DNA of 38,489 nucleotides from Thermotogota bacterium (lineage in GTDB: Bacteria; Thermotogota; Thermotogae; Thermotogales; Fervidobacteriaceae). Under the pieces are notes generated by a model, which made no database searches, was not told where the DNA came from, and worked only from the letters and a program-made list of their open reading frames with translations. Made by a program: the position numbers and the translations under genes. The DNA lies in contig JAUQPP010000010.1 in NCBI GenBank assembly GCA_030550315.1, positions 1 to 38,489 on the forward strand, given 5' to 3'. Positions 27,399 to 35,447 of this stretch are shown here, piece by piece; position 1 is the first letter of the stretch; the number at the start of each line of letters is the position of its first letter.

Positions 27399-28364
27399 TC
27401 ACAAGAATTTAGCAATGTCGTCGATTTGAACTCTGCTTCGTGGAGAAAATTCCAGTTGAAGGTGTTTTTCGTTCAGTGACTCAAAATCTCCCCAATATCC
27501 AACCGCGATAAGGGTAATCACCGTACCATCGATTTTTAGCAGTTCCCTGACCCTAACAGGATCGTACCCTGCAACTGGATGTGCCACCAATCCCATCTGT
27601 GTTGCTTGAACCAGGAGCATTCCAACGGACATTCCGGTATCGAAGAGAGCGTAGTTCCTGTCGTTTGAAAGTTGGCAGTCAAACTCATCCTTCGTGTAAA
27701 CCACGATGATAGCTGGAGCGTTTTTCATCCAATAGTTTCCACCCGAGAGCGTTTCATGCAGTTTTTCAAGCGTCTCCTTACTATTAGCCACAATAAACCT
27801 CCACGGTTGTTTATTCATACACGAGGGAGCCAAGTGGGCCGCTTCTATCAGTTTTTGGAGAACTTCCTTTGGGATAGGTTTGTTAGAAATTCCTCGATAT
27901 GCGCGTCTTAGGATTATGCTTTCATTTAATTCTTGGTCTTCTGCAATGATTTTTCTGTATTCTTTCAATACTTCCTGTGCATGACCGACGACGTTAACCT
28001 TTACCCATTCTCGTCTTATACGTCCCCATGGATCGACGATGAACGTGGAGCGGATGAGTTTCCCGTCTTTTAGAACACCAAATTTCTCGGCGACCTGTTT
28101 TTCTGGATCGGCAAGTAGTTTAACTTTCAAGCCTTTCTTGGATTTAAAATTCGCAATGGTATTGCACGTATCGGGTGAGATGCCTACAATGTTTCCTCCA
28201 AATTCATCTATAAGACTTGAAAAATCCAAAGCCTCCATTGTGCATCCTGGCGTGTTCGCTTTTGGATAGAAGTAAACTACGGAGTATTTACCGAGTAAAT
28301 TCGTCCAATTGAATTCCTTACCTTCCTCATCCATAAGCACGAACTTGGGAATCATTTTACTCAT
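27399..28364 (-). CDS. Peroxiredoxin-nitroreductase fusion protein
   Basis: 321 residues in two parts. Residues 1-145 are a BCP/PrxQ-type peroxiredoxin: '[14 protein letters not shown]' with peroxidatic Cys in the PGCT motif; a likely resolving Cys lies downstream near 'SPDTCNT'. Residues 150-321 are a flavin (FMN) nitroreductase domain: '[13 protein letters not shown]', '[17 protein letters not shown]', '[25 protein letters not shown]'. The same fusion is described for T. maritima. It may couple NAD(P)H, through FMN, to peroxide reduction. The ATG at 28364 overlaps the korB stop by 4 bases; the next ATG (28355) has better spacing to GGAAG. Last gene of the IOR/KOR operon. Confidence 0.93.
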
Positions 28365-29191
28365 ACTTCCAACCCCCTAAAAGCAACGGGTGTTTTATCC
28401 GTCATGTAAGGTGCGAGTTGTTCTTCGTACACCGGCCGATTCGGGTTCATGTAGATAACACCAAGTGCAAGTTTTGACGTACCAGTTGCTACTTTGAAGG
28501 CCCATTCCCTGTCCCTCGGGTCATAGTTATCTGGCAAGAGATAAGTGTTCTCCCTGTACCACTGGTACGTGTTGACCTTGTTAAATGTGACGCACGGCTG
28601 GAGTATATCAACAAGTGCATACCCTTTGTGTTTGATGGCCATCTTGATCAGCTCAACCGTCAGGTTGAAATTACCAGAGAAGCTTCGAGCTACAAACGAA
28701 GCATCAAGAGCTACCGCGACGGCTACTGGATTGAATGGATCAACTGGAACTCCGTCAAACTGCAGTGTCGTGACTTGTCCACGTGCAGTTGTTGGTGAAG
28801 CCTGTCCTTTAGTTAGCCCGTAAATTTGGTTATCGTGAACTACGTTCGTTATATCCGGATTCTTTCTTATTGTATGAATGAAATGATTGCCTCCCTCACC
28901 ATAAGTACAGCCATCACCACTCTCCGCAATGACCACGAGTTCGGGATTGACCATCTTTATAGCCACAGCTGCCGGTAACGAACGTCCGTGCAAACCGTTG
29001 AACATGTGAGCCCTGACGTACTGTGGCATCTTTGCCGCTTGACCAATTCCCGAAACGATGACCACACGATGTGGAGGTAATTCAAGTTGTGCAAGCGCAG
29101 TCTTTAGCTCGTTGATTATACCAAAGTTTCCACAACCTGGACACCATGCAATGTCCGCTCCCGGAATATCGTAGATTTTTGGGTCGAACAT
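28361..29191 (-). CDS. korB: 2-oxoacid:ferredoxin oxidoreductase, beta (TPP-binding) subunit
   Basis: 276 residues. TPP-binding half of a KorAB-type oxidoreductase: '[13 protein letters not shown]', '[14 protein letters not shown]', '[18 protein letters not shown]', '[22 protein letters not shown]', and '[15 protein letters not shown]'. The Cys residues in WCPGCG match the beta-subunit cluster motif. The start is ATG at 29191, 1 base after the korA stop (TAATATG) with GGAGGGAGG upstream; the frame extends 17 codons further. The N-terminus MFDPKIYD fits the family. The 2-oxoacid is probably 2-oxoglutarate, but branched-chain or pyruvate relatives look similar. Confidence 0.92.
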
Positions 29192-29192
29192 A

Positions 29193-30914
29193 TTACTCAT
29201 CCTCCCTCCGAAGTCTTCCGACCACTCCAAGTATCCTTTCAACAGCTTCCTCCACGGAAAACGGGAAACCGTCGTACTTAAGGATACGCTCGTCGGTGTG
29301 GATTCCGAAAACCAATTTCAAAAGGTTCGCAAATTGACCTGTTGCGTTGCCTTCAAAGAAGATAGTTTTCCTCGCCTTTTCAATAAAATCGGTAATCGAT
29401 GGATGCACAGGGTAAACTTGGGAGAAGTGCAGTAGAGCGATATTCAATTTCAGTTCATCGTTCAGTAGTTCAACGGCCTCTTTTAAAACCAACTGGGTGG
29501 ATCCCCAAGCAACTAGTAAATATTCGTAGTTTTCCGGGCCAAAGAGTTTGGGAGGAACGCTATCTTCCAACATGTACTTGAGCTTTCTCAGCCTCTTTTC
29601 GACCATCCTTTTGCGGACTTGCGCGCTCTCCGTAATGTGGCCGTACTCATCATGTTCATCGCTATCAACTCTCACCAATCCAGTTCCATAACCGGGAATC
29701 CCGCGCGGTGAAATTCCACTTTCGGTGATTTCGTACCTACGGTAATTTTCATCAGTTTTAACAACGTAACGCTCAATCTTTGCATCGGGCATGGTTTCCA
29801 CGTTGTAAAACGAATCAAGGAAGTACTGATCGGTTAAAACAAAAACGGGAATCTGATACTTGTCAGCAATGTTAAAAGCTCTTGCTGTTAGTTCGTAAGC
29901 TTCGCACAGGTTTCCCGGTGCATAGATTACCCGCGGGAACTCACCGTGTCCGGCATGGAGAACCAAATTCAAATCGCCTTGTTCGGTTCTTGTCGGAAGC
30001 CCCGTTGCAGGACCTGGTCTTTGGCCAAGGTGTACCACAATGGGGGTTTCTATCATGCCGGCTAAGCTTATTGCCTCAGTCATCAATGCAAACCCCCCGC
30101 CAGAAGTGGAAACCAACGCACGTGCACCAGCGTACCAAGCTGCGATCGCCATATTCGCGGCAGCAATTTCATCCTCGGCCTGATCGACGAGAATCCCGTA
30201 CTCTTTCGATAACCTTGAAAGCTCGGTAAATACGGTAGTTGCTGGTGACATTGGGTACGAAGAGATGAAGTTACAGCCCCCAGCTATCGCGCCTCGTGCT
30301 ACCGCTTCGTAACCTGCCATTAAATAATGCGATTTGACCTCTTGCGACGGAATTAATTCGAATCTCAGTCCGAGAGTTCGACCGATTTCCAAACCCTTCA
30401 AGGCTGCGTTAACGTTTGCCTTAACAACGTCCTCGGACTTCCTAGAAAAATAAGCGGTGATATGTTTCACGAGAGCCTCCTCTTGTGCGCCGATGATTCC
30501 GGAAAGAACACCGATTGCCACGGAGTTCTCGTAAATCTTGTTTCCAAAACTCTCCGCAATCTCTTCGAAGTTTACCACCAGTGCGTTCCTTTCACCGCGA
30601 ACGTACTTCTCGTTCCCGAGGATAATCGTTTCGCTTGTTATCCTGTCCCTAAGTCTTTCAAGCGCGTTATCGTTCAGCGGAACAAGGATGTCGATTCTAT
30701 CCACATAAGCTTTCACCGGACGCTCAGAAATCCTTATGGACGTGGAATTGTTCCCACCACGCACCCTGGACATGTACTCCTTAGTTGCAAAAACATGGAA
30801 ACCCGAATCTTTCGCAATACGTGTGAACACATGTTCAACCGTCTGTATACCCTGCCCAGCTGCACCGCTGAGCACCATGCACACTTCTCCGTTTTGTTTT
30901 CTTCTGAGATTCAT
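29193..30914 (-). CDS. korA: 2-oxoacid:ferredoxin oxidoreductase, alpha subunit (gamma-alpha fusion)
   Basis: 573 residues. About 1-190 is the gamma-like domain ([33 protein letters not shown]). From about 195 the alpha domain begins with '[36 protein letters not shown]' and '[36 protein letters not shown]', then '[18 protein letters not shown]'. This gamma-alpha order is typical of two-subunit KOR enzymes (KorAB), which decarboxylate 2-oxoacids to acyl-CoA with reduced ferredoxin. ATG at 30914 lies 1 base after the iorB stop. No ferredoxin-like domain is in this chain. Confidence 0.92.
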
Positions 30915-30915
30915 C

Positions 30916-31488
30916 TCAGAACACCTCCATAGAACGTTCGAAAACGACTAGGTTGGCTTCGTAGACCTTGTTGCTCATCATATCCGCCATAGCTCTTAAG
31001 TAGTGTTCCTTCAAGACGTTTGGAATAAGCGAATATTTCGCCACCACACCTAAGAGAGCGATATTTTGCATACGCGCATCCGGTAATTCCATCCAAACCC
31101 TAAAAACTCGAACGCCGTTACCGTTACAAGCATCTTGAATTTCTTCGCTAGTAACTTCCATTTCTCGTCCAAGTCGGACGGGAAGAGGCTGCCAGGAAGT
31201 GTCGTAATAAACCAACGTTCCTCTGGGTTTCAAGTATGACAATCCGCGCAAGGCTTCGTGTCGTTCGAGTGCGATTACCAGATCAACATCACCCGGAATC
31301 ACCAGGGGAGAATGTACTTCCCCTATCTTTATGTGCGAAGAAACTACTCCACCTCGCTGTGCAAGGCCATGCGTATCCACTCCAAGGACTTTCTGGCCAC
31401 TGTAGTCAACTGCCCTTGCGATGATTTCACTCAGTAACCCGATTCCTTGCCCTCCAACACCTATCAAGAATATAGAAAAACTCCTCAT
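30916..31488 (-). CDS. iorB: Indolepyruvate:ferredoxin oxidoreductase subunit beta
   Basis: 190 residues, gamma-type Rossmann domain: 'SIFLIGVGGQGIGLLSEIIARA', 'THGLAQRGGVVSSHIKIG', 'DLVIALERHEALRG'. With IorA it oxidatively decarboxylates aryl pyruvates from aromatic amino acid transamination. The ATG at 31488 overlaps the iorA stop by 4 bases and the korA start lies 1 base after its stop. Overlap on both sides points to one transcript and fixed stoichiometry. Confidence 0.93.
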   Translation of the reverse strand: MRSFSIFLIGVGGQGIGLLSEIIARAVDYSGQKVLGVDTHGLAQRGGVVSSHIKIGEVHSPLVIPGDVDLVIALERHEALRGLSYLKPRGTLVYYDTSWQPLPVRLGREMEVTSEEIQDACNGNGVRVFRVWMELPDARMQNIALLGVVAKYSLIPNVLKEHYLRAMADMMSNKVYEANLVVFERSMEVF

Positions 31489-33338
31489 CTCACATCACCA
31501 CCACTTACAGGTGAATTCTCAAGTTCAAGGGCACCGGATGGACAAACTACCATGCACGATCCATCGCCGATACACAGATCTCTGTGAACGAATATGCGAC
31601 CGTCTTCTCCAATTTGGAAGGACGGGCAAGCGAAGTTTGAAACACAAACGCGAGCCAACGTGCACCTGCTTGTTATCCTCAGCTTAGATGCCGTTACGAT
31701 GCCTTTCTTCCTACGCTCCCTTGTGAATTTCAACATACATGGATGTTTTGCGATCACAACACTGAACTCAGGAGCTTCAAGTGCCGCTCGCAGGTATTCT
31801 TCGAGCTTATCCTGCTGGTAAGTATCCACTTCCCAGATGTACTTGACACCGATTGCCTCCAAAAGATTTCTTATCTTTATCTTCTTTCCTGGATGATCCT
31901 GATGACCGGTCATTGCCGTTGTCCCGTTTTCCATGATTACTAACGTCAGTTTATGGTTGTTGAAAATCGCGTTTACAATCCCAGGAATGCCGGCGTGGAA
32001 GAACGTTGAATCACCGAGGAGTGCGATAACGCGCCTTGAGTTGTTCATTAAGCTTAACCCAGCACCTGTACTCACGGAATGCCCCATCGATAGCAGAACT
32101 TGACCTACATTGTAAGGGGGCAAGAAACCGAGCGTATGGCAACCAATATCGGCAACGGAGATATCGCTATCTTTAAGTATCTTGGAAAGCACATAAAAGA
32201 CCGGCCTGTGTCCACAGCCTGGACACAGCTGTGGTGGACGCTTTACTATTCTGATAGAATCGATGCGTTTTGGAAGGTGCACCAAATCTGGCCACGTCTT
32301 TGAGAGTACCTTTGCCACCTTTTCTGGGGTGTACTCACCGATCCAGTCATCTATGTCCAGCTTTCCAAAAATCTTGACGTCCAATCTTTCCTCGAAAGCT
32401 ATAGCCTTCACGGTTTGTTCAATAAAATCGTCGAGTTCCTCGAGCACCATCACCTGTTCGTGCATCCTTAAGAACTCTGTTATCGCCTTTCGCGGGAGTG
32501 GGTAGACCATTCCGAGCCTAAGAATATCAACATCCCCAACCTTCTCTCCTAGCACATCTAAGAGGGATAAAAACGGTAGGCCCGCGGTGATGATACCGCG
32601 TTTGTTTTTTGAACCAATCGCGTACGCGAAACGTTCCGAAATTTCGGCCCATTTCCGTAACTTTTCAATTGCTCTTCGTTTCATAACGGGTACGTTTTCA
32701 GCTATTGGAATGTAAGGTCCGAAAGATATTGGATCAAAAAGTGCGGGGGGAAGTTGCCTTGGAACGTAAGTCCCAAAATTTACCCTCTGTTTATAATGAG
32801 CCGTGTGGGTTGTGAGTCTGACTATTACAGGAGAACGCAAGTCCCTAGAATATTCGACCGCCGCTTTAAACATGTCGTAAACCTCTTGTGCATCCTTCGG
32901 TTCAAAAACGGGAGTGTAAGCCATACGTGCGTAATGACGATTATCCTGCTCATTTTGTGAACTGTTTGCACCGGGGTCATCGCCTATAACAATAACCATT
33001 CCGCCGGGAATTTCCATCATGCTTAACTGAACGAACGAATCGGCAACAACGTTCATCCCAACACTTTTGAAAAACACACACGATGTTCTACCATTTACCG
33101 CCGCACCAAAGGCTACTTCAAGTGCAACCTTCTCGTTGGTTGAAAACTCAAAGTATAAAGGGTTCTTGTCAGAAGGTATACTCAAAATCGCTTCGGCAAT
33201 CTCTGGTGTTGGTGAACCTGGATAGGAAGTCACAACCTGCACACCACTTTCAATCATCGCTCGAACGAGTGCGTGATTCCCAATGAGTATCTCCGAAAAC
33301 GGTCCCTTCTCAACTAACAAATCACCTAAACGTTTCAC
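31485..33338 (-). CDS. iorA: Indolepyruvate:ferredoxin oxidoreductase subunit alpha
   Basis: 617 residues. An alpha-like domain ('GNHALVRAMIESGVQVVTSYPGSPTPEI', 'FSTNEKVALEVAFGAA') is followed by a TPP-binding domain ('PPQLCPGCGHRPVFYVL', 'ALLGDSTFFHAGIPGIVNAIFN', 'ENGTTAMTGHQDHPG') and a C-terminal diferredoxin-like tail. The tail reads CTLARVC...ACP and CIGDGSC..VCP: in each CxxCxxCxxxC-type motif the second cysteine is replaced, by Ala (codon 31655-31653) and Asp (codon 31565-31563). The start is GTG at 33338 behind GGGGGGAGA; a GTG 18 codons upstream lacks a site. First gene of the five-gene operon, divergent from the hydrogenase. Confidence 0.93.
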   Translation of the reverse strand: MKRLGDLLVEKGPFSEILIGNHALVRAMIESGVQVVTSYPGSPTPEIAEAILSIPSDKNPLYFEFSTNEKVALEVAFGAAVNGRTSCVFFKSVGMNVVADSFVQLSMMEIPGGMVIVIGDDPGANSSQNEQDNRHYARMAYTPVFEPKDAQEVYDMFKAAVEYSRDLRSPVIVRLTTHTAHYKQRVNFGTYVPRQLPPALFDPISFGPYIPIAENVPVMKRRAIEKLRKWAEISERFAYAIGSKNKRGIITAGLPFLSLLDVLGEKVGDVDILRLGMVYPLPRKAITEFLRMHEQVMVLEELDDFIEQTVKAIAFEERLDVKIFGKLDIDDWIGEYTPEKVAKVLSKTWPDLVHLPKRIDSIRIVKRPPQLCPGCGHRPVFYVLSKILKDSDISVADIGCHTLGFLPPYNVGQVLLSMGHSVSTGAGLSLMNNSRRVIALLGDSTFFHAGIPGIVNAIFNNHKLTLVIMENGTTAMTGHQDHPGKKIKIRNLLEAIGVKYIWEVDTYQQDKLEEYLRAALEAPEFSVVIAKHPCMLKFTRERRKKGIVTASKLRITSRCTLARVCVSNFACPSFQIGEDGRIFVHRDLCIGDGSCMVVCPSGALELENSPVSGGDVR

Positions 33339-33377
33339 CGCTCTCCCCCCCTTCCGCAAACTTCTCAAAAGACGTTT

Positions 33378-33443
33378 ACTAAACTTAGTCACAACTTAGT
33401 TATTTTCAAATTCATTATACGATAAAATCCTGTACTTCGTCTA
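33378..33443 (-). promoter_or_regulatory. iorA promoter region with repeated AACTTAGT
   Basis: TATAAT (33419-33414) with TAGACG (33443-33438, 18-base spacer) gives a moderate promoter on the minus strand. Just downstream in the leader, AACTTAGT occurs twice exactly 11 bases apart (33382-33389 and 33393-33400), and ACTAA-AC-TTAGT (33378-33389) is a dyad. This is a candidate binding site for a regulator. Confidence 0.45.
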
Positions 33444-33613: not shown

Positions 33614-33695
33614 AAGAAAGGAAATTATTGACTATTATGGTGGTGTTTAAGAAGGCAGATTATAATCTTAATTTTATTTCGGAGGTGTGGGGCCG

Positions 33696-35447
33696 ATGGT
33701 GACTATCTACATCAACGACAAACCGTACCAAGTGCAGGAAGGCAAAACTGTTCTTGAGGTTGCTTGGGAACTCGGTTACAAAATCCCTACCCTTTGTCAT
33801 CACCCGGAGCTTGAGCCAATAGGAGCTTGTAGGATATGTGTTGTTGAGATCGAAGGTGCAAGGACATTACAACCGGCTTGTACAACAAAAGTTGCCGATG
33901 GAATGAAGATAAAGACGAACACCGAACGTGTCGAAAGTGCTGTGAAGTTCAATCTCTCCCTTATTATGGCAAACCATCCTCACGAATGTATGTACTGTGA
34001 GGCTGATGGAAGGTGCGAGCTCCAGAAGCTGGTTCACATGTACGATATCCAACCGATATTTGGTGTCAACGTTGCGAAGGAAAAAGAAATAGATATTAGT
34101 AGTCCATCCATTAACCGCGATCTTTCGAAGTGTATTAAATGCCAGAGATGTGTGCGTGTGTGTAGTGAAATCCAGGGAATGAACATATATTCAATGGTTG
34201 AGCGTGGCTACGAGACGCTTCCGGAGACTGAATTCGGTATTCCGGTTTATGAAACAAACTGTATCAGCTGCGGACAGTGTGCGTACTTGTGTCCGGTCGG
34301 TGCTATCTATGAAACGCCGGATTGGAAAAAAGTTTGGAAGATGCTCAACAACAAGGAACCCGGCAAAGTTTACGTGGCGCAAACGGCCCCATCTGTTAGA
34401 GTGACTATTGGAGAAGAATTTGGCATGGAACCTGGAACGGTTAGCACTGGTAAGATGGTAGCGGCGTTGAGAAGGCTCGGATTCGATTACGTTTTTGACA
34501 CAAATTTCGGCGCCGACTTAACGATAATGGAGGAAGGCTACGAGCTTATTCACAGGCTCCAAGAGGGTGGTAGATTCCCAATGTTCACTTCCTGTTGTCC
34601 AGGTTGGGTGAACGAGATGGAGAAAGAATGGCCGGAACTTCGAGAACACCTCTCAACAGCAAAATCACCGCAACAGATGATGAGCAGTGTTGTCAAGACG
34701 TATTTTGCGCAAAAGATTGGCGTGAAACCTGAGGATATCGTGATGGTTTCGGTGATGCCATGTACAGCGAAGAAGGATGAAATCACCAGACCACAGCAAT
34801 TGGTTGATGGAATAAAGGTGACCGACTACGTCATCACAACAAGAGAACTCGGAAAACTCATCAAACTCAAAGGCATACCGTTTGTGAATTTGCCAGAAGA
34901 ACAGTACGACAGTCCACTTGGTACATCAACCGGCGCGGCCGCGCTCTTCGGTGTTACCGGTGGTGTTATGGAGGCTGCGCTGAGAACCGCGTATGAAGTG
35001 TTGACTGGCCAGAGACTCGCAAAGCTTGTCTTTGAACCGGTACGTGGTCTTGATGGAATAAGGGAAGCGGAGATTGATATCAATGGGAGAAAATTGAAAG
35101 TTGCCATCGCACACGGTATGGCCAACGTTAAGAAGCTACTCAGAGAAATGAAAGAAGGTAAAAGGTATTACGACTTCGTTGAGATCATGGCCTGTATGGG
35201 CGGTTGTATCGGTGGTGGCGGACAGCCGAAGAACCTCGACCCAGACATCCTTAAGAAGCGCGCAGCTGCGATTTACAGCATCGACGAAATGAGTGTACTC
35301 AGAAGGTCGCACGAGAACCCAGATATCATAAAACTCTACGAGGAGTTCCTAGGAAAGCCGAACAGCCACATTGCTCACCATCTGCTCCATACGCATTACA
35401 CCGACAGGTCGAAAGCGGTACGCAAGGCTCAGAAGACCGTGAGTTAA
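33696..35447 (+). CDS. [FeFe] hydrogenase, CpI-like, single subunit
   Basis: 584-residue class enzyme (583 from this start) that reduces protons with reduced ferredoxin. Cofactor sites in order: [2Fe-2S] ligands Cys34, Cys45, Cys48, Cys62; His94/Cys98/Cys101/Cys107 cluster; two [4Fe-4S] sites (Cys146-149-152-156 and Cys189-192-195-199); H-cluster motifs TSCCPGW (Cys300 relay, Cys301 ligand), MPCTAKKDE (Cys356) and CMGGC (Cys500, Cys504). Length and order match monomeric Clostridium pasteurianus CpI. It lacks the C-terminal extension of bifurcating HydA and has no hydB/hydC beside it. ATG at 33696 is 9 bases after GGAGGT; the GTG at 33687 is too close to that site. No maturation genes here. 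Confidence 0.95.
   Translation: MVTIYINDKPYQVQEGKTVLEVAWELGYKIPTLCHHPELEPIGACRICVVEIEGARTLQPACTTKVADGMKIKTNTERVESAVKFNLSLIMANHPHECMYCEADGRCELQKLVHMYDIQPIFGVNVAKEKEIDISSPSINRDLSKCIKCQRCVRVCSEIQGMNIYSMVERGYETLPETEFGIPVYETNCISCGQCAYLCPVGAIYETPDWKKVWKMLNNKEPGKVYVAQTAPSVRVTIGEEFGMEPGTVSTGKMVAALRRLGFDYVFDTNFGADLTIMEEGYELIHRLQEGGRFPMFTSCCPGWVNEMEKEWPELREHLSTAKSPQQMMSSVVKTYFAQKIGVKPEDIVMVSVMPCTAKKDEITRPQQLVDGIKVTDYVITTRELGKLIKLKGIPFVNLPEEQYDSPLGTSTGAAALFGVTGGVMEAALRTAYEVLTGQRLAKLVFEPVRGLDGIREAEIDINGRKLKVAIAHGMANVKKLLREMKEGKRYYDFVEIMACMGGCIGGGGQPKNLDPDILKKRAAAIYSIDEMSVLRRSHENPDIIKLYEEFLGKPNSHIAHHLLHTHYTDRSKAVRKAQKTVS

What the first reader, a model, noticed from the sequence alone, without database searches (positions are those of the whole stretch)
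31551..31668. IorA ferredoxin tail has lost the second cysteine of both cluster motifs
The tail reads C-T-L-A-R-V-C and C-I-G-D-G-S-C where CxxCxxC is expected, so each site keeps three cysteines plus Ala or Asp. An Asp at this place is known in Pyrococcus furiosus ferredoxin, where it gives a site-differentiated [4Fe-4S] that can be [3Fe-4S]. Two altered clusters in one IOR would change redox potentials or electron flow.
Basis: partly seen in the sequence, partly recalled or inferred. Interest (0 to 1): 0.6.

Follow-up and report, generated by a model that had tools for sequence, protein, structure and literature searches.

The report
IOR-like enzyme with rewired iron-sulfur tail
A whole branch of bacterial keto-acid-oxidising enzymes has given up one cysteine at each of its two tail iron-sulfur sites, putting a strictly conserved aspartate at one of them; this probably changes the cluster type and where the electrons can go, and it is not a sequencing error.

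Summary
The 635-aa IorA-like protein (31485-33392, minus strand) ends in C577-TLA-RVC583...C589P and C607-IGD-GSC613...C617P: the second cysteine (Cys-II) is Ala in motif 1 and Asp in motif 2. It is not an error or decay. All 32 members of its clade in three phyla lack both Cys-II: motif 1 varies (A,K,Q,I,R,S,N,E), motif 2 is always Asp. All 40 canonical IorA examined have eight Cys. On a tree of the catalytic core alone the Asp set is one clade (SH-aLRT 100), and the tail is under the same purifying selection as the core. No other cysteine replaces the lost ligands. Six genomes carry both this paralogue and a canonical IorA. It fails the curated IorA cut-off. The motif is closer to the Sulfolobus ferredoxin [3Fe-4S] site (DLCIADGSC, Asp unbound, reduced by an OFOR) than to P. 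furiosus ferredoxin (TCIGDAIC, Asp-ligated). I infer two three-cysteine sites, at least one [3Fe-4S], with a more positive electron exit. Neighbours in three lineages (Prx-nitroreductase, OsmC, rubrerythrin) hint at peroxide-related acceptors. A second IorA clade has CxxHxxC in motif 1. Substrate, cluster types and acceptor are untested.

The parts
31485..33392 (-). IorA-like protein of the Asp clade (635 aa as called from GTG 33392; relatives start at residue 19, so the true start is probably GTG 33336-33338)
   Evidence: start from alignment A1
31626..31664 (-). tail motif 1: C577-T-L-A580-R-V-C583 and C589-P; Cys-II replaced by a variable residue
31542..31574 (-). tail motif 2: C607-I-G-D610-G-S612-C613 and C617-P; Cys-II replaced by an invariant Asp
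32136..32225 (-). Cys390, Cys393 (CPGCGHR) and Cys418 (DIGCH), three of the four putative proximal [4Fe-4S] ligands, invariant in all 99 IorA aligned
31737..31739 (-). Cys552 (KHPC), putative fourth ligand of the proximal cluster, invariant in all 99
30916..31488 (-). IorB-like subunit (POR domain, PF01558), ATGA overlap with iorA; adjacent to iorA in every Asp-clade locus whose flank was long enough to show it
29193..30914 (-). 2-oxoacid:acceptor oxidoreductase alpha subunit (fused gamma-alpha, TIGR03710 over cut-off)
28361..29242 (-). 2-oxoacid:acceptor oxidoreductase beta subunit (TIGR02177 over cut-off)
27399..28364 (-). peroxiredoxin (AhpC-TSA) - nitroreductase fusion, start overlaps the beta-subunit stop; last gene of the operon

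Best explanation
This is the alpha subunit of a distinct paralogue of indolepyruvate-type 2-oxoacid:acceptor oxidoreductase. TPP oxidation of a 2-oxoacid feeds electrons to the proximal [4Fe-4S] cluster (Cys390/393/418/552, retained). From there they pass to a C-terminal ferredoxin-like tail whose two sites each have only three cysteines. Site 2 (607/613/589 plus unbound or loosely bound Asp610) most likely holds a Sulfolobus-ferredoxin-type [3Fe-4S] cluster that may convert to Asp-ligated [4Fe-4S]. Site 1 (577/583/617, no possible fourth ligand in most members) most likely holds [3Fe-4S]. The exit potential is therefore more positive than in ordinary IOR, which makes the oxidative direction more one-way and allows acceptors other than low-potential ferredoxin. 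Shown: both Cys-II lost, Asp invariant, three cysteines kept at each site, purifying selection, single clade, distinct from a coexisting canonical IorA. Inferred: cluster types, potentials, direction, acceptor.
For: 32/32 clade members have Asp610 and no Cys580; C577, C583, C589, C607, C613, C617 are 32/32. Asp set is one clade on a core-only tree, SH-aLRT 100. dN/dS of tail 0.00-0.125, like the core. No extra invariant Cys or other ligand-like residue near motif 1. Coexistence with eight-Cys IorA in G038, G046, G054, G055 and G103, G105. Clade-specific invariant changes elsewhere in the core, including T60S in the YPxTP carboxylate-binding motif, R196H and H238K. Sulfolobus 1xer reads DLCIADGSCINACP and P. 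furiosus 1siz reads DTCIGDAICASLCP; the clade reads DLCIGDGSC. PMC6237146: CXX[A/G]XXC is the [3Fe-4S] motif; ferredoxins with H, N, S, T or Y there were all isolated as [3Fe-4S].
Against: No structure: AlphaFold models were unusable (pLDDT 56 and 48). Ser612 also occurs beside Cys610 in the sister L099 and in two canonical sequences, so the Asp-Ser pair is not exclusive. P. furiosus shows that Asp at this place can hold [4Fe-4S] anaerobically (PMC6237146), and these are anaerobes. Potentials of [3Fe-4S] proteins overlap those of [4Fe-4S] at the low end (below -340 mV for one, PMC6237146).
Confidence: 0.55

Rival explanations
1. Mixed tail: site 2 is an Asp-ligated [4Fe-4S] as in P. furiosus ferredoxin, site 1 a [3Fe-4S]; a 7Fe-type tail in the enzyme as it works in the cell.
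For: Invariant Asp, 32/32; CIGD identical to P. furiosus CIGD; anaerobic isolation keeps [4Fe-4S] there (PMC6237146).
Against: Ser two residues after Asp matches the Sulfolobus unbound-Asp site, P. furiosus has Ile there.
Confidence: 0.28
2. Both sites hold four-iron clusters with an open coordination position, used for binding a ligand or substrate rather than electron transfer.
For: Three cysteines per site are invariant; site 1 has no plausible protein ligand in A, K, R, I members.
Against: No precedent in ferredoxin-type domains for two such sites that I know of; the variable residue at site 1 argues against a precise binding pocket.
Confidence: 0.1
3. Sequencing error, frameshift or decay of a tail no longer used.
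For: Tailless IorA homologues exist in another lineage (L145).
Against: The same states in 32 sequences from many independent genomes in three phyla, with varied codons; dN/dS about 0.02-0.12 in the tail.
Confidence: 0.02
4. The enzyme donates to peroxide-reducing proteins (Prx-nitroreductase, OsmC, rubrerythrin), directly or through a carrier; the tail is tuned for this acceptor and for resistance to oxidation.
For: Three lineages each have a different peroxide-related gene next to iorAB on the same strand: Prx-NR in 5 of 5 long loci of f1/f5, OsmC in 7 f9 genomes, rubrerythrin in 6 f10 genomes. Base rate only 8-11 such genes per genome for these three families. None among the genes tested beside the six canonical Thermotogota loci sampled.
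Against: About eight other lineages lack it; the theme was chosen after seeing the data; OsmC and Prx are usually reduced by thiols, not by Fe-S proteins.
Confidence: 0.2

Closest known systems
Canonical indolepyruvate:ferredoxin oxidoreductase alpha subunit (IorA, TIGR03336)
   Same: Domain order POR_N - TPP_enzyme_C - ferredoxin tail, four proximal-cluster Cys, adjacent IorB
   Different: 35-39% identity, below the curated cut-off (552 vs 651 bits), lacks Cys-II of both tail motifs, invariant clade-specific core changes, coexists as a paralogue
Sulfolobus zinc-containing 7Fe ferredoxin, cluster I (PDB 1xer, 2vkr)
   Same: DLCI[AG]DGSC...CP motif; a [3Fe-4S] site that accepts electrons from an OFOR (PMC2946596)
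   Different: A separate protein with a zinc site and a full [4Fe-4S] as the second cluster; here the site is part of the oxidoreductase and the other site also lacks Cys-II
Pyrococcus furiosus ferredoxin (PDB 1siz)
   Same: CxxDxxC...CP with CIGD
   Different: Single cluster, Asp is a ligand, no Ser at +2, separate protein (PMC6237146)
Mycobacterial/actinobacterial CXX?XXC [3Fe-4S] ferredoxins (Fdx1-11 of M. marinum)
   Same: Cys-II replaced by many different residues, as at site 1 here and as CxxHxxC in the second IorA clade (PMC6237146)
   Different: Single-cluster stand-alone ferredoxins serving cytochromes P450

Membership tests
IorA (TIGR03336, equivalog) | score above the curated cut-off 650.9 bits | tested here: not met
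   552.3 bits; Asp-clade relatives 540-568 against 877 and 875 for canonical Thermotogota members
IorA (TIGR03336, equivalog) | alpha subunit with POR_N, TPP-binding and C-terminal ferredoxin tail, next to IorB | tested here: met
IorA (TIGR03336, equivalog) | tail with two CxxCxxC...CP motifs (eight Cys) | tested here: not met
   six Cys plus Asp
IorA (TIGR03336, equivalog) | oxidises arylpyruvates with ferredoxin as acceptor | not testable with these tools
   no assay; invariant T60S, R196H and H238K suggest a changed pocket
2-oxoacid:acceptor oxidoreductase superfamily | TPP-binding core and proximal [4Fe-4S] cysteines | tested here: met
   PF02775 and PF01855 over cut-off; four Cys invariant in 99 of 99
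[3Fe-4S]-type ferredoxin site (Cys-II replaced) | Cys-I, -III, -IV kept, Cys-II replaced | tested here: met
   both sites, 32 of 32
[3Fe-4S]-type ferredoxin site (Cys-II replaced) | cluster shown to be [3Fe-4S] by EPR or structure | not testable with these tools
   needs purified protein

The most novel reading that the evidence does not exclude
The first natural dicluster tail with two [3Fe-4S] sites (6Fe): a clade of IOR-like oxidoreductases with a built-in Sulfolobus-type acceptor site and a more positive exit, probably serving peroxide-linked acceptors instead of low-potential ferredoxin.
Probability: 0.3. Interest if true: 0.7.

Novelty: new variant of a known kind. Interest (0 to 1): 0.52.

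Why it matters
Annotation pipelines call these genes IorA and models assign reduced low-potential ferredoxin as the product. If the tail holds one or two [3Fe-4S] clusters, the electron yield and reversibility of the step change. Two [3Fe-4S] clusters in a bacterial-type dicluster domain are described in one review as very unusual, with the known case a crystallisation artefact (PMC2946596). Here a selectively maintained natural series (CC, HC, VC, XD) in one enzyme family makes the role of Cys-II testable by comparison, without mutants.

Tried and rejected
Sequencing error and decay: rejected. Other cysteines filling the sites: rejected, as the only other invariant Cys are the four proximal-cluster ones shared with all IorA. 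Single loss of motif-1 Cys-II shared by the Asp and His clades: marginally rejected (AU p = 0.047), so two losses are only weakly favoured. Obligate link to the two-subunit OFOR in the window operon: rejected, since it is confined to f1 and f5. Direct phmmer of the whole protein against PDB: no IorA structure. Paper searches for IorA with [3Fe-4S], for Pelosinus IOR, and for 'two 3Fe-4S clusters': nothing relevant. Wide scan of genome contigs is capped at one, so phyla beyond the three sampled were not checked.

Full report
Observation. The ORF 31485-33392 on the minus strand encodes an IorA-like protein of 635 aa: POR_N, TPP_enzyme_C and a C-terminal Fer4 region. Its tail reads C577-TLARV-C583-VSNFA-C589-P and C607-IGDGS-C613-MVV-C617-P. 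Aligned to canonical IorA of the same phylum (CTGCKICINTFGCP...CWGCGSCVQICP, L041; also eight Cys in Peptoclostridium acidaminophilum, L147), the spacing is unchanged and exactly Cys-II of each motif is replaced, by Ala580 and Asp610.

Error, chance or biology. Relatives were taken from the phylum (103 genomes), from a scan of genome contigs and from samples of the phyla of Pelosinus (299 genomes) and of a deltaproteobacterial MAG that NCBI places in Myxococcota (297 genomes). Of 99 distinct IorA-like proteins, 32 have Asp at 610 and no Cys at 580 (A 11, K 5, Q 5, I 3, R 2, S 2, N 2, E 2). One (L099) has Val580 with Cys610. Twenty-five have His580 with Cys610. Forty have both Cys. One (L145) lacks the tail. 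The six other tail cysteines are kept in all 98 tailed proteins, and the four putative proximal-cluster cysteines in all 99.

Tree. A maximum-likelihood tree on the catalytic core with the tail cut away puts the 32 Asp proteins in one clade (SH-aLRT 100), with L099 as sister (100). The His proteins form a separate group (support 66) near two eight-Cys proteins. Holding all motif-1 losers together costs 19 log-likelihood units (AU p = 0.047), so loss of Cys-II in motif 1 probably happened twice, but the evidence is marginal. L099 suggests that motif 1 changed before motif 2. The Asp clade covers Thermotogota (27 of the 32), Bacillota (Pelosinus, and G357 from its phylum sample) and L039 with G685 from the Myxococcota sample.

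Selection. Pairwise dN/dS of the tail is 0.00-0.125, the same range as the core. The tail is maintained.

A separate enzyme. The protein scores 552 bits against TIGR03336 with a cut-off of 651; canonical Thermotogota members score about 876. G038, G046, G054 and G055 and G103 and G105 have one copy of each kind. The clade has 38 invariant positions that are rare in the others, among them T60S in the YPxTP motif that binds the substrate carboxylate in OFORs (PMC5020499), R196H, H238K and P394G. The substrate may therefore differ; that was not tested.

What the sites hold. Site 1 has three cysteines and, in most members, nothing that could bind a fourth iron; CXX[A/G]XXC is the described [3Fe-4S] motif, and even H, N, S, T and Y variants were isolated as [3Fe-4S] (PMC6237146). 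Site 2 has an invariant Asp. P. furiosus ferredoxin (TCIGDAIC) binds [4Fe-4S] through this Asp at -375 mV, or [3Fe-4S] at -160 mV (PMC6237146). The Sulfolobus 7Fe ferredoxin (DLCIADGSC) has the Asp unbound, hydrogen-bonded to the Ser two residues on, and a [3Fe-4S] at -280 mV that is the cluster selectively reduced by the cognate OFOR (PMC2946596). The clade has both Asp610 and Ser612 invariant and the same DLCI lead-in. I therefore favour the Sulfolobus-like reading, with the caution that Ser612 also occurs with Cys610 in L099 and two canonical proteins. The same review calls two [3Fe-4S] clusters in a dicluster ferredoxin very unusual, an artefact in the known case.

Mechanism (inferred). 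Two-oxoacid oxidation by TPP, electrons to the proximal [4Fe-4S], then downhill to one or two [3Fe-4S] sites in the tail, then to an acceptor that need not be low-potential ferredoxin. Confidence 0.55 for this, 0.28 for the mixed 7Fe alternative.

Neighbours. iorB follows in every locus long enough to show it. In families f1 and f5 the operon continues with a two-subunit OFOR and a peroxiredoxin-nitroreductase fusion. In seven f9 genomes an OsmC gene precedes iorA; in six f10 genomes a rubrerythrin does; in G685 a divergent nitroreductase. The three families together have 8 to 11 genes per genome in the genomes counted, so about 1% per lineage is expected for the two flanks and three of about eleven lineages is unlikely by chance. 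The theme was chosen after seeing the data, other lineages lack it, and one gene per flank was sampled for canonical loci. I treat it as a lead.

Limits. No structure prediction was usable. No spectroscopy exists. No paper on this clade was found in the open library, which does not hold most subscription journals. Sampling covers three phyla only.

Noticed in passing
L100-L120, L122-L125 (phylum sample of G105): A second IorA clade has CxxHxxC in motif 1 with a full CxxCxxC in motif 2 (25 sequences), the described [3Fe-4S] pattern.
   Followed up: partly
L145 (G652) and about a dozen other hits ending near residue 560: IorA-like proteins with no ferredoxin tail at all, still next to an iorB-like gene in L145.
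   Followed up: no
window 27399-33392: Five tightly packed genes with short start/stop overlaps at iorA-iorB and beta-PrxNR: iorA, iorB, a two-subunit OFOR alpha and beta, and a peroxiredoxin-nitroreductase fusion; conserved in f1 and f5.
   Followed up: partly
window 33687-35447: Divergent [FeFe]-hydrogenase with 2Fe-2S, 4Fe-4S and HydA domains, 98.6% identical in the sister species; possible electron partner, not tested.
   Followed up: no
L049:11804-12370: A fragment of iorA (67% identical to residues 224-402) downstream of Prx-NR in G070, apparently a partial duplicate.
   Followed up: no
window 33336-33392: The called GTG start adds 18 residues that relatives lack; GTG at 33336-33338 is the likelier start.
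   Followed up: partly
window 29193-29242: The TTG start called for the OFOR beta subunit overlaps the alpha gene by 50 bases; the ATG near 29200 is more likely.
   Followed up: no
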